64,000 bases of DNA from Methylomarinovum caldicuralii (GTDB lineage Bacteria; Pseudomonadota; Gammaproteobacteria; Methylococcales; Methylothermaceae). Made by a program: the position numbers and the translations under genes. Every line of letters starts with the position of its first letter. Position 1 is the first letter of the stretch. The notes beneath the pieces are model-generated. The model was not told the origin of the DNA. It saw only the letters and a list, made by a program, of their open reading frames with translations, and did no database searches. The stretch is from contig NZ_AP024714.1 in the NCBI RefSeq assembly GCF_033126985.1, positions 992,001 through 1,056,000 on the forward strand, read 5' to 3'. This document shows, one piece after another, positions 11,082 to 15,443 of the stretch.

Positions 11082-13544
11082 ATGGACGAGAACTACCGCC
11101 CCCACGCCATCGAGGAAAAGGTTCAACGGCTCTGGGAAGAAACCCGCGCCTTCGAGGTCACCGAGGACCCAAGCAAGGAGAAGTTCTACTGCCTGTCGAT
11201 GTTCCCGTATCCCTCCGGGCGGCTGCACATGGGCCACGTGCGCAACTACTCCATCGGCGACGCCATCGCCCGCTATCAGCGCATGCTGGGCAAGAACGTG
11301 CTCCAGCCCATGGGCTGGGACGCCTTCGGCCTGCCGGCGGAGAACGCCGCCGCCAAGCACGGCATCCATCCGGCCAAGTGGACCTACGAGAACATCGAAT
11401 ACATGAAGGGGCAGCTCAAGCGTCTCGGGTTCGCCTACGACTGGAAACGCGAGATCGCCACCTGCGATCCCGGCTATTACAAATGGGAACAGTGGTTCTT
11501 CACCCGGCTGTTCGACAAGGGCCTGGCCTACCGCAAGATGGCCACGGTCAACTGGGACCCGGTGGACCAGACCGTGCTCGCCAACGAGCAGGTCATCGAC
11601 GGCCGCGGCTGGCGCTCCGGGGCACCGGTGGAACGGCGCGAGATCCCCCAGTGGTTCCTCAAGATCACCGCTTACGCCGAAGAGCTGCTCCAGGATCTGG
11701 ACCAGCTGGAAGGCTGGCCCGAGCGGGTCAAAACCATGCAGCGCAACTGGATCGGCAAGTCCGTCGGGGTGGAGATGCAGTTCCCCCTGGAGGGCGGTGA
11801 TGAGTCCATCACCATCTTCACCACCCGTCCGGATACCGTCATGGGGGTGACCTACCTGGCCCTGTCCCCGGAGCATCCGCTGGCCCTGAAGGCGGCCGAG
11901 ACCCATCCCGAGCTCAAGGCCTTCATCGAGGCATGCAAGAAGAGCGCCGTGGCCGAGGCCGATCTGGCCACCATGGAGAAGAAGGGCTGTCCCACGGGGC
12001 TTTACGCCGTTCATCCCATCCGCGGCGACAAGGTGCCGGTGTGGGTCGCCAACTTCGTGCTGATGGAATACGGCTCCGGGGCGGTCATGGCGGTGCCGGC
12101 CCACGACCAGCGCGACTGGGAGTTCGCCAAAAAATACGGTCTGCCGATCAAGCAGGTGATCGCCCCCAAACCCGGCAGCGATGTCGAATGCGATCTGGAA
12201 CAAGGCGCTTTCACCGCAAAGGGCGTGCTGATCGACTCCGGTCCCTTCACCGGCCTGACCTCGGAGGAAGCCTTCGAGGCCGTCGCCCGCTGGCTGGAGA
12301 GTCACGGATACGGGCACCGGAAGGTCCAGTACCGCCTGCGGGACTGGGGGGTGTCGCGCCAGCGCTACTGGGGGGCGCCGATTCCCATCCTGTATCTGGA
12401 GGACGGCACCCCGATTCCGGTGCCTGAAGACCAGCTGCCGGTGGCGCTGCCGCTGGATGTAACCCTAGACGGGGTCCACTCGCCCCTCAAGACCGACCCG
12501 AACTTTTACGAGGTCACCCTGCCGGACGGGCGCAGGGCCAAGCGGGAAACCGACACCTTCGACACCTTCATGGAATCGTCCTGGTATTTCACCCGCTTCA
12601 CCTGCCCCGACTACGCCGCCGGCATGGTGGACAAGGAAAAGGCCGACTACTGGCTGCCGGTGGACCAGTACGTGGGCGGCATCGAACACGCCATCCTCCA
12701 TCTGCTCTACGCCCGTTTCTACCACAAGCTGATGCGCGACCACGGCCTGGTGAGCTGCGACGAGCCCTTCAGGAACCTGCTCACCCAGGGGATGGTGCTC
12801 AAGGACGGGGCCAAGATGTCCAAGTCCAAGGGCAACGTGGTCGATCCCGAGGAACTGATCGGGAAATACGGCGCCGATACCGTGCGCCTGTTCATCCTCT
12901 TCGCCGCTCCGCCGGAACAGTCGCTGGAGTGGTCCGACAGCGGCGTGGAAGGGGCGTTCCGCTTCCTCAAGCGCCTGTGGCGCCAGGTGGCGGCCTTCGT
13001 CAACGGGGCGGGGGATGTGGCGGCGCTCGACAAGGCGGCCCTGACCCCGGCCCAGAAGGAACTGCGGCGCCAGATCCACCAGACCATTGCCAAGGTGAGC
13101 GACGCCATGAACCGGCGCTACACCTTCAACACCGCCATCGCCGCCAACATGGAGCTGCTCAACGCCCTGGCCAAATTCGAGGACGACAGCCCCCAGGGGC
13201 GGGCCGTCAAGCGCGAGGGACTGGAGGCCATCGTCCTGATGCTCGCCCCCATCGTCCCCCACATCTGCCACGAACTGTGGCAGGCCCTGGGGCACGAGGA
13301 CATGGTCATCGACGCTCCCTGGCCCAAAGTGGACGAAAGCGCCCTGGTGCAGGACACCATCGAGTTGGTGGTCCAGGTAAACGGCAAGCTGCGGGGCAGG
13401 ATCCAGATGCCCGCCGACGCCGACAGGGAAGCCGTCGAAAAGGCGGCGCTGGCCGAACCCAACGTGCAGCGCTTCATCGAAGGCAGGACGGTGCGTAAAA
13501 TCATCGTGGTGCCGGGGCGGCTGGTGAATGTGGTAGTGGGATGA
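11082..13544 (+). CDS. leuS: Leucyl-tRNA synthetase
   Basis: Class I synthetase charging tRNA-Leu; 820 residues, normal length for bacterial LeuRS. The HIGH-type motif is HMGH in [15 protein letters not shown] (about residue 45), the editing (CP1) domain carries [12 protein letters not shown] and [14 protein letters not shown], and the KMSKS loop is AKMSKSKGN near residue 575. The C-terminal VQVNGKLRG tail is typical. I start at the ATG at 11082 ([15 protein letters not shown]), which matches the family; an upstream in-frame start adds eight unlikely residues. The stop overlaps the start of a nucleotidyltransferase gene by 4 bases, which is unusual for leuS; the common partner lptE is not here. 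Confidence 0.97.
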
Positions 13545-13855
13545 GCGTCGGGGTGCGGTTGCTGCCGGAACAGATCGAGGCCATCCGCCGCGTGGTGCGG
13601 GAGGTGGCCGGTGAGCGGGCCCGGGTGTTCCTGTTCGGCAGCCGCACCGATCCTGAGGCCCGGGGCGGTGACATCGACCTGCTGGTGCAGCTGGACCGTC
13701 CCCTGGACGAGGCCGCCCGCTTTCGTCTCAAGCTCGAGCTTTTGGCGCGCCTGTACCGGGAACTGGGCGAGCGCAAGATCGACCTGGTGATCGTCGCCGA
13801 CCGGCCGCAGACCGATTTCGAGCGCCAAGTGATTCGTGAGGCGGTGCCACTGTGA
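13541..13855 (+). CDS. mntA: Minimal nucleotidyltransferase, MntA-type antitoxin of a HEPN/MNT system
   Basis: 104 residues. The nucleotidyltransferase motif [18 protein letters not shown] (about 31-48) gives GS and the first two catalytic Asp; a third Asp is in KIDLVIV near residue 82. In characterised pairs, MntA adds AMP residues to the HepT toxin tyrosine and silences it. The gene starts inside the leuS stop (ATGA) and ends inside the HEPN start (GTGA), so it is coupled to both neighbours. It could instead modify another substrate, for instance tRNA, but the HEPN partner makes the antitoxin role the best reading. Confidence 0.87.
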
Positions 13856-14310
13856 AAGATGACCATGCCCGCTTTCAGCTCTATGCCCAGGAATGCCAAC
13901 GCCATTTGCAGCTGCTGCAGCGCAACATAGAACGTTTGGCTCCCCATCTGCCGCTGACGGCGGAGACGGTGGCGACCCTGGTCGAAACCGACGAGGGCTT
14001 GTGGATTCTCGACCAGATTGCTTACCGCTACCTCAAGTTGCAGGACACCTTGGGCAAACTGGTGCGCGCCTTTTTCGCCCTCAAGGGGGAAGCCGTGGAA
14101 CGGATGACGATGATCGATTTGATCAACCTGGCGGAAAAGCTGGGTTATCCTGTGGACGAAGCGCTGTGGATGCGCCTGCGTGCCTTGCGTAACGAAATCA
14201 CGCACGAGTATCCCGGCAGCCATGGCGAAGTTGCCGAGGCGGTGAATAAATTGGTGCAGTTTTTGCCGACGCTGCAGGCACTTCTGGTGAAACTGCAGCA
14301 GGCCGCATGA
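13852..14310 (+). CDS. hepT: HEPN-domain RNase, HepT-like toxin
   Basis: 152 residues, all-helical in appearance. Near residue 110 it carries RNEITHEY, a perfect RX4HXY motif: Arg and His are the HEPN RNase residues and the Tyr is the site AMPylated by MntA in studied HepT proteins. Start is GTG at 13852, overlapping the mntA stop by 4 bases; its own stop overlaps the following CARF nuclease start by 4 bases. Likely target is RNA (tRNA or mRNA); not determinable from sequence. Confidence 0.87.
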   Translation: MKDDHARFQLYAQECQRHLQLLQRNIERLAPHLPLTAETVATLVETDEGLWILDQIAYRYLKLQDTLGKLVRAFFALKGEAVERMTMIDLINLAEKLGYPVDEALWMRLRALRNEITHEYPGSHGEVAEAVNKLVQFLPTLQALLVKLQQAA

Positions 14311-15443
14311 GCCGCCACGTCTGCCTGGTGTCCGATCAGGCGGTCCCCAACATCACCCCGGTGCTGGATCCGGACACCCGCCCCGCTGCGGTCACGCTGG
14401 TGGTGGCGCCGGAAATGGAACGGCAGGCACGCTGGCTCAAAAAGGTGCTGCGCGAGGCCTGCGGTGTTCCAGTGGAGCGGTGGCCGGTGGCCGATGCCTG
14501 GGATGCGGAGCATCTGCTGGGGCGTTTCATGGAATTGCTGGAGGCCCATGACGACCTGATCCTCAACGCCACCTGCGGCACCCGTCCCATGAGCATCGCC
14601 GCCTTCGAAGCCTTCCGCGCTTACGAGCGGCCGGTCTTCTACGTCCATCCCTTCACCGACGAGCTGTTCTGGCTCCACCCCCACGACCGTCCCCGCCATC
14701 AGCTGGCCGACCGCATCAAGCTGCGCCATTTTCTCCTGGCCTGCGGGGCCGAGATCAAGGCCAGTGCCGACATCCGCATTCCGCCGGCCTACCGGGAACT
14801 GACCGCCTACCTGGTGCTCAGGGTCGAAGACTTTGCCGGCGCCCTGCGGGTGCTCAACTGGTATGCCGCCAGTGCGCGGGAGACGCTCGAATCCGAGCCG
14901 ATCCGTTCCGAATACCTGCACCGCCCCGAGTTCCTGGAACTGCTGAACCGCTTCCAGGCCGTCGACGCGCTGCGGATTCGCCACGGCCGCCTGGTGTTTC
15001 CCGATGAAAACGCCCGCTTCTTCGTCAACGGCGGCTGGCTCGAAGAACACGTCTTCAGCCAGGTGCAGCAGCTGCGCCGGCGGCTGCCGCTGATCCAGGA
15101 CCTGGCCCGCAACCTGCTGATCGCCCGCGACACCGGCCACGGCGAGGTGGAGAACGAGCTCGACGTGGTGTTTCTGGCCAACAACCACCTCTACCTGATC
15201 GAGTGCAAGACCCGCCATTTCCATCCCGAGGAGGCCGACGAGAACGGTCCCGGCGCCGAGGCCATCTACAAGCTCGATACCCTCAAGGAAGTCCTCGGCG
15301 GTCTCCACGGCCGGGGCATCCTGGTGTCCTACCTGCCGCTGGCGGAACCGGACCGGCGCCGGGCCGCCGATCTGGGCATCCGCGTCTGCGAGGGGCGTCA
15401 GATCCAGGATCTGCCCCACATTTTCCGCGAGTGGATCATCTAA
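14307..15443 (+). CDS. CARF-PD-(D/E)XK nuclease, Card1/Can2-like (DUF1887 family)
   Basis: 378 residues, the usual size of Card1/Can2. The N-terminal half is a CARF fold: a beta strand HVCLVSDQAVPNITPVL, then ILNATCGTRPMSIAAF (about 89-104), the ligand-binding loop family motif. The C-terminal half has a wing-like linker followed by ENELDVVFLANNHLYLIECKT (split here: ENELDVVF at about 284-291 and YLIECKT at about 297-303), the ExD...ExK core of a PD-(D/E)XK nuclease. Studied relatives bind cyclic tetra-adenylate made by type III CRISPR Cas10 and then cut ssRNA/ssDNA or nick dsDNA. No array or cas gene lies in this window, and the gene is fourth in a leuS-mntA-hepT chain with an ATGA overlap. 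It converges on the patatin gene, overlapping by 8 bases. Confidence 0.85.
   Translation: MSRHVCLVSDQAVPNITPVLDPDTRPAAVTLVVAPEMERQARWLKKVLREACGVPVERWPVADAWDAEHLLGRFMELLEAHDDLILNATCGTRPMSIAAFEAFRAYERPVFYVHPFTDELFWLHPHDRPRHQLADRIKLRHFLLACGAEIKASADIRIPPAYRELTAYLVLRVEDFAGALRVLNWYAASARETLESEPIRSEYLHRPEFLELLNRFQAVDALRIRHGRLVFPDENARFFVNGGWLEEHVFSQVQQLRRRLPLIQDLARNLLIARDTGHGEVENELDVVFLANNHLYLIECKTRHFHPEEADENGPGAEAIYKLDTLKEVLGGLHGRGILVSYLPLAEPDRRRAADLGIRVCEGRQIQDLPHIFREWII

What the first reader, a model, noticed from the sequence alone, without database searches (positions are those of the whole stretch)
13541..15443. leuS-coupled MNT-HEPN-CARF nuclease operon with no CRISPR locus
Three genes follow leuS with ATGA/GTGA overlaps: a minimal nucleotidyltransferase ([14 protein letters not shown]), a HEPN RNase with perfect RX4HXY (RNEITHEY), and a 378-residue CARF plus PD-(D/E)XK protein of the Card1/Can2 (DUF1887) type with an NATCGTRPMS loop and an ExD...ExK core. 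HEPN/MNT pairs are known toxin-antitoxins, and Card1/Can2 are known type III CRISPR effectors fed by cyclic tetra-adenylate. The combination as one transcription unit outside CRISPR is, to my knowledge, not described. It could be a layered defence: the nucleotidyltransferase might both silence HepT and supply or mimic a signal, or the nuclease may listen to a Cas10 elsewhere.
Basis: partly seen in the sequence, partly recalled or inferred. Interest (0 to 1): 0.85.

Follow-up and report, generated by a model that had tools for sequence, protein, structure and literature searches.

The report
Orphaned CRISPR nuclease beside toxin-antitoxin pair
A bacterium related to methane oxidisers seems to have lost its type III CRISPR system but keeps, behind a tRNA-synthetase gene, an intact nuclease of the signal-gated kind such systems use, in one gene row with a toxin-antitoxin pair that a sister species has already dropped.

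Summary
In detail: leuS, MNT, HEPN and a CARF/PD-(D/E)XK nuclease follow each other with 4-nt overlaps. The nuclease is of DUF1887/Can2 type (Z 42.2 to VC1899, 37.7 to Can2) and reads as a displaced type III effector: relatives carry it in type III loci, four species at leuS. The window's genome shows no Cas10 or RAMP gene but keeps one perfect copy of its sister's CRISPR repeat with matching flank, probably a scar; it has two type I-E Cas1 genes beside arrays. The nuclease is under purifying selection. In sister G009 the MNT motif and nearly all of HEPN are deleted, the nuclease not, so the proposed MNT signal is not supported; MNT-HEPN resembles a type VII pair. Wider: among 87 relatives 25 lack the cA4-contacting lysine, none with cas10 in the fetched flank, yet the active site is kept. 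One of these, L076, is the third gene of a HipBA operon and has the window's pocket letters. Off-CRISPR members may sense another signal. New variant of a known kind.

The parts
11058..13544 (+). leuS, upstream gene; its stop codon overlaps the MNT start
   Evidence: 828-aa ORF; match in 10 of 10 genomes of the genus searched
13541..13855 (+). MNT minimal nucleotidyltransferase, predicted MntA-like antitoxin, GSX9DXD
   Evidence: broken in sister G009
13852..14310 (+). HEPN RNase, predicted HepT-like toxin, RNEITHEY
   Evidence: nearly all deleted in sister G009
14307..15443 (+). DUF1887/Can2-type CARF plus PD-(D/E)XK nuclease; pocket S9 A34 C90 R93 Y112, active site E284 D286 E299 K301
15436..17169 (-). 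patatin-like phospholipase, convergent neighbour, right edge of the inserted block (in G005 it lies near leuS without the block)

Best explanation
The third gene is a type III CRISPR ancillary nuclease (Can2/DUF1887) that left its CRISPR locus and settled behind leuS in the ancestor of four species, in one gene row with an MNT-HEPN toxin-antitoxin pair. Shown: homology and fold, catalytic residues, the same site in four species, Cas10 elsewhere in G007 and G009, no Cas10 or RAMP match in this genome, a one-repeat remnant, purifying selection. Inferred: it is a homodimer held off until a nucleotide binds the CARF domains, then nicks DNA and/or cuts RNA; in the sisters it serves their type III system in trans; here it is an orphan whose ligand is no longer made by an own Cas10. 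The MNT most likely AMPylates the tyrosine of RNEITHEY and so silences the HEPN RNase, independently of the nuclease.
For: Family and fold: (pLDDT 93.7). Block at leuS in G000, G007 and G003 (split over two contigs) and, reduced, in G009. cas10 in the flank of 24 of the 80 nuclease loci. No RAMP match in G000, no match to the sister's Cas10; the one Cas10-like hit is a GGDEF protein. Remnant: 36-nt repeat, 0 mismatches, then homologous flank, 88.9% over 144 nt in all. Nuclease dN/dS 0.105 between G000 and G009, leuS 0.149; G000 branch 5 nonsynonymous and 8 synonymous codons, p 0.006 against neutral. MNT-HEPN independence; HEPN relatives in 141 of 301 genomes; of 30 HEPN loci fetched MNT is in 29, the nuclease in 2.
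Against: The pocket has drifted (Thr42 to A34, Lys99 to R93, G to C90), so cA4 gating is not assured. G009 has the same R93 and C90 although it has Cas10, so the change is not simply a result of losing Cas10. Part of the G000 branch may predate the loss. The remnant's flank and the next syntenic block run in opposite directions, so it was no clean excision. A toxin-antitoxin pair beside this nuclease recurs: L109 and L123 (type III loci) and L076 (off CRISPR), which leaves room for a functional link. No expression or activity data.
Confidence: 0.6

Rival explanations
1. Off-CRISPR DUF1887 nucleases, this one included, are a functional class of their own: the CARF pocket has been re-tuned to a ligand not made by Cas10.
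For: Of 87 aligned relatives 25 lack the cA4-contacting lysine (20 Arg, 3 Gly, 2 His). A cas10 hit in the fetched flank: 0 of 25 against 26 of 62 with Lys; loci of 12 kb or more 0 of 20 against 21 of 36. All 87 of 87 keep E, D, E, K. dN/dS 0.054-0.126 in 5 of 6 lysine-less pairs, the sixth saturated. L076 has the same S-A-C-R-Y pocket as the window, on another branch.
Against: 10 of the 25 lie in genomes with RAMP genes, so Cas10 could serve them in trans. Corrected for descent there are only 3 independent pairs, not significant. My cas10 profile missed a likely Cas10 in L123. Arg may hold a phosphate as Lys does. No ligand, SMODS cyclase or shared partner found.
Confidence: 0.3
2. A decaying relic, as proposed for VC1899: a former effector that no longer responds to anything.
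For: Best match in sequence and fold is VC1899, in which PMC7969007 saw only weak RNase activity not regulated by cA4; the Thr42 and Lys99 equivalents are changed here; no Cas10.
Against: No stop or frameshift, catalytic residues intact, dN/dS 0.105; the pocket keeps S9 and Y112, which VC1899 does not.
Confidence: 0.17
3. Toxin-antitoxin pair and nuclease work together as one cassette, for example the pair as an addiction lock or as a second arm released on infection.
For: 4-nt overlaps throughout in the window and in L076 (HTH gene, HipA, nuclease); L109: cmr genes, nuclease, MNT, HEPN overlapping in one row; L123: HTH gene, HipA-like genes, small gene, nuclease in a type III locus.
Against: Broken in G009 without loss of the nuclease; L109 MNT and HEPN are 42% and 29% identical to the window's and not their nearest relatives, so the linkages arose separately; HEPN in 3 of the 80 loci and an MNT fragment in a fourth, HipA in 2 loci of those held; such pairs are common genes anyway.
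Confidence: 0.15
4. One reading: MNT makes or mimics the CARF ligand while silencing HEPN.
For: Gene overlaps; MNT is a nucleotide-using enzyme (family knowledge).
Against: G009 keeps the nuclease without the MNT motif; the MNT family pairs with HEPN without the nuclease in 28 of the 30 HEPN loci fetched or fewer (nuclease in 2); L076 has no MNT.
Confidence: 0.04

Closest known systems
Can2 / Card1 (DUF1887 CARF plus PD-(D/E)XK), type III CRISPR ancillary effectors (PMC7969007, passages)
   Same: Fold over the whole length, CARF loop, E-D/E-K active site, Ser19 and Tyr118 equivalents
   Different: Not in a type III locus, no Cas10 found in the genome, Thr42 to Ala and Lys99 to Arg
VC1899, orphan DUF1887 protein, PDB 1xmx (PMC7969007, passages)
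   Same: Best structural match; off CRISPR; shares a C-G-x-R loop
   Different: VC1899 keeps none of the four cA4 residues, only the charge at Lys99; the window protein keeps two, and follows MNT-HEPN
HepT/MntA type VII toxin-antitoxin (PMC7641770, passages) and Legionella HEPN-MNT (PMC11586414, search listing only)
   Same: Gene order MNT then HEPN, RX4HXY, HEPN fold
   Different: MNT motif GSX9DXD instead of GSX10DXD, in 18 of 18 members aligned; HEPN below curated cut-offs

Membership tests
Can2/DUF1887 | N-terminal CARF and C-terminal PD-(D/E)XK nuclease with E-D / E-K core | tested here: met
[quoted passage not shown]
   In this genome 0 RAMP matches and 0 matches to the sister's Cas10; seen in relatives
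Can2/DUF1887 | cA4-contacting residues Ser19, Thr42, Lys99, Tyr118 | tested here: inconclusive
   S9 and Y112 kept, Ala at Thr42, Arg at Lys99
Can2/DUF1887 | cA4-activated DNA nicking and RNA cleavage | not testable with these tools
   needs purified protein
HepT/MntA type VII toxin-antitoxin | HEPN with RX4HXY | tested here: met
   RNEITHEY; at the aligned place in 21 of 22 members, H to Q in one
HepT/MntA type VII toxin-antitoxin | MNT with GSX10DXD | tested here: not met
   GSX9DXD; definition from PMC7641770
HepT/MntA type VII toxin-antitoxin | HEPN fold of MNT-paired toxins | tested here: met
   First 15 rows are HEPN toxins, HI0074, two Thermus entries called nucleotidyl transferase and YutE, Z 14.7 to 11.3; next row 9.4. 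Caveat of the tool: helical models reach Z about 14 by common arrangement, and the model rests on 3 sequences
HepT/MntA type VII toxin-antitoxin | AMPylation of the tyrosine and neutralisation of toxicity | not testable with these tools
   needs expression
Type III CRISPR locus of its own | Cas10 and RAMP subunits near the nuclease | tested here: not met

The most novel reading that the evidence does not exclude
The window protein belongs to a recurrent, functional class of CRISPR-independent CARF nucleases that left type III loci several times, exchanged the cA4-binding lysine (mostly for arginine), kept the nuclease under strong selection, in at least two lineages became the last gene of a toxin-antitoxin operon, and now answer to another nucleotide signal.
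Probability: 0.28. Interest if true: 0.8.

Novelty: new variant of a known kind. Interest (0 to 1): 0.52.

Why it matters
It catches a type III effector after its CRISPR system was lost: the remnant repeat, the sister with the system and the sister without the toxin-antitoxin pair can all be read. It makes a question testable: do CARF nucleases persist without Cas10 because they respond to another signal? The published orphan VC1899 was suggested to be degenerate; low dN/dS and fixed catalytic residues in lysine-less relatives argue against decay as the general rule.

Tried and rejected
Considered and rejected or weakened: MNT as ligand source (G009); leuS as functional partner (variable downstream gene); a CBASS cyclase as ligand source (SMODS family 0 of 4 genomes; other cyclase families not searched); a conserved partner of lysine-less nucleases (largest shared neighbour family in 4 of 23 loci). 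My first reading of the Cas1 hits in G000 as chance, written in notes, was wrong: they are Cas1e. The Lys association is not significant when corrected for descent: 3 independent pairs. The tree was a quick one and kept the trait's own columns. Reading contig numbers as the tail of the record names (my inference), the RAMP matches lie on the nuclease's own contig in none of the 9 lysine-less genomes that have any, and in L083, L093, L094, L105, L123 and L132 among those with Lys. For rows with cas10 in the flank I counted the genome as type III without a genome-wide search. Dropped before the count of 87: 7 duplicate and 3 fragment rows; L128 had no type III status. A last survey of 369 genomes of the class found the nuclease in 21 (E 1e-20); of 15 loci then fetched 7 have cas10, all with Lys; 2 lack Lys (one is L090 again), neither with cas10; no MNT or HEPN and no HipA hit among them. 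Neighbours of lysine-less genes were looked at only as ORF starts, not identified by search except L076. PMC7498327 is not held. In print: in the listings of searches and the passages read I saw no MNT-HEPN-DUF1887 operon and no lysine pattern; most papers listed were not opened, and subscription papers and preprints are mostly not held.
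Full report
Observation. Three ORFs follow leuS on the + strand at 13541-13855, 13852-14310 and 14307-15443, each with a 4-nt overlap to the gene before. No promoter-like site was found in 13300-15700, which fits one transcription unit but is only a consensus scan. No repeat array was found in the window.

What the proteins are. 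The third protein hits Pfam Card1_endonuc (95.9 bits) and CARF_Card1 (62.1 bits), over cut-off, and PADLOC CARF4 at 397 bits. Its best solved relatives by sequence are VC1899 and Can2. An AlphaFold2 model (pLDDT 93.7) aligns to VC1899 with Z 42.2, rmsd 1.9 over 366 residues, and to SthCan2 with Z 37.7, rmsd 1.9 over 336. The HEPN protein is divergent; its model (pLDDT 88.2, three sequences) matches the Legionella HEPN toxin at Z 14.7, HI0074 at 14.1 and HepT at 12.9; unrelated rows start at 9.4. The tool warns that helical models reach about 14 by common arrangement, so the fold rests also on the motif and on the profile match to HI0074 (E 5e-4). In the MNT family the motif is GSX9DXD in 18 of 18, one residue shorter than GSX10DXD (PMC7641770, passages).

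Where it occurs. The genome is one contig of 2,694,844 bases. Of 61 genomes searched, 16 have the nuclease at E 0.001 or better. At leuS it lies in G000, G007, G003 and G009. Two contigs with the same lengths and match positions as those of G003 and G007 are named Methylothermaceae in genome contigs, so the window is probably from that family (inference). G007 has the full trio; G003 has MNT and the first 126 HEPN residues at a contig end, and the HEPN tail plus nuclease at the start of another. G009 has lost 109 nt of MNT with its motif, and nearly all of HEPN, but its nuclease is intact and 97% identical. After leuS, G001, G002, G005, G006 and G008 have other genes; in G005 leuS, patatin and recC lie near each other without the block. 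In G005, G016 and G054 the nuclease is within about 10 kb of cas10. In G002, and as a fragment in G006, it is beside the argininosuccinate synthase gene.

Type III not found here. RAMP profile: 0 matches in G000, matches in 13 of 17 genomes; the other three without are G004, G011 and G018. Cas10 palm profile: in G000 one match under cut-off, a protein with 155 bits to GGDEF. The sister's Cas10 as query, 7 genomes: 0 in G000, present in G002, G007 and G009, 0 in G003, G011 and G018; G003 has RAMP matches but 330 contigs. The sister's CRISPR repeat occurs once in G000 without mismatch, control 0, and not in G003 or G007. It is followed by sequence homologous to the end of the sister's array, 88.9% over 144 nt including the repeat. 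The next syntenic block runs the other way, so the history is not simple. The genome has two Cas1e proteins, 381 and 318 bits, each near an array, of 21 and about 35 repeats. Type I-E is not known to make cyclic oligoadenylate (recalled).

Selection. dN/dS between G000 and G009: nuclease 0.105, leuS 0.149, patatin 0.251; G000 to G007: nuclease 0.248, HEPN 0.110, MNT 0.265; between G003 and G007 MNT reaches 0.464 and HEPN 0.265. Of 42 codons that differ between the G000 and G009 nucleases 10 are nonsynonymous; polarised, the G000 branch has 5 nonsynonymous and 8 synonymous (p 0.006).

The pocket. SthCan2 contacts cA4 through Ser19, Thr42, Lys99 and Tyr118 among others (PMC7969007, passages). 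The window protein has Ser9, Ala34, Arg93, Tyr112. G002, G005 and G008 have Ser34 and Lys93; G003 and G007 have Ala34 and Lys93; G000 and G009 have Ala34, Cys90 and Arg93. Over 87 relatives, 62 have Lys; 25 do not (20 Arg, 3 Gly, 2 His). A cas10 hit in the fetched flank: 26 of 62 against 0 of 25 (p 2e-5). Type III anywhere in the genome: 51 of 61 against 10 of 25 (p 1.4e-4). Loci of 12 kb or more: 21 of 36 against 0 of 20; clusters at 70% identity: 36 of 44 against 7 of 17, p 0.004. The label changes 7 times on the tree, at least 3 by starred branches; with only 3 independent pairs it is not significant after correction. All 87 keep E, D, E, K. Lysine-less pairs have dN/dS 0.054 to 0.126 in 5 of 6; in the sixth dS was saturated.

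Toxin-antitoxin neighbours. The HEPN query matches 141 of 301 genomes of the order. In the 30 HEPN loci fetched (flanks mostly 1.5 kb) MNT is in 29, the nuclease in 2 (G000, G007), cas10 in none. Among the 80 nuclease loci, HEPN is beside the nuclease in L058 and L059 (the records of G003 and G007) and L109, and an MNT fragment lies in L079; G005 has a weak HEPN-like ORF (E 2e-5) beside its nuclease. L109 is a type III-B row: Cmr3 and other cmr-like genes, nuclease, MNT, HEPN and a further protein overlapping. L123 has an HTH gene, a HipA_C protein (150.9 bits), a small gene and the nuclease in a row, then genes that look like cas10 and RAMP genes. No HipA or MNT-HEPN was found in the 15 further loci.

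Mechanism, shown and inferred. Shown: families, order, no type III found, remnant repeat, constraint, dispensability of MNT-HEPN in one sister. Inferred: nucleotide-gated homodimer, nicking or RNA cutting, service in trans in the sisters, AMPylation of the HEPN tyrosine. The likeliest link between pair and nuclease is shared location, perhaps with the pair as a stabiliser; the repeated pairing with different toxin-antitoxin types keeps a closer link open, and speaks against MNT as signal maker.

Known and new. [quoted passage not shown] Not seen in the searches listed under Tried and rejected: the leuS block, the remnant of type III beside a constrained effector, the lysine pattern, the HipBA-nuclease row.

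Noticed in passing
L076:8356-11125 (Thiotrichaceae MAG): HTH gene, HipA and a DUF1887 nuclease overlap by 4 nt each, off CRISPR, with the same pocket letters S-A-C-R-Y as the window protein.
   Followed up: partly
L109:1-6861 (Mariprofundaceae contig): Type III-B row in which the Can2-type nuclease, MNT, HEPN and a further protein overlap: an independent linkage of the three families inside a CRISPR locus.
   Followed up: partly
L123:7847-15156: HTH gene, split HipA-like genes, a small gene that recalls a DUF1874 ring nuclease (not searched), Lys-type DUF1887 nuclease, then genes that look like a divergent cas10 and RAMPs.
   Followed up: partly
L121, L122, L126 (Geobacter relatives): DUF1887 nucleases whose CARF loop reads SGAFG, with Gly in place of Lys, dN/dS 0.066 and 0.076 in two pairs and intact active site.
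   Followed up: no
G000:C1:2674844-2694843 and 2221000-2240999 (L198, L199): Two Cas1e genes with arrays of 21 and about 35 repeats in the window's genome.
   Followed up: partly
G009:C1:1333905-1353017: Sister's type III locus lies between two short arrays of the same repeat in opposite orientation.
   Followed up: partly
window 7909-10996: A DDE transposase gene lies directly before a TonB-dependent receptor split into a plug ORF and a barrel ORF.
   Followed up: no
window 18065-18157, - strand: ARAGORN calls a tRNA-Arg inside the recC-like gene; Rfam at gathering threshold does not list it.
   Followed up: no
G001:C52:1-12515 (L180): In one species of the genus a type III locus (an ORF that resembles the Cas_NE0113 gene of G009, then cas10) starts about 2 kb downstream of leuS on the same strand.
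   Followed up: partly
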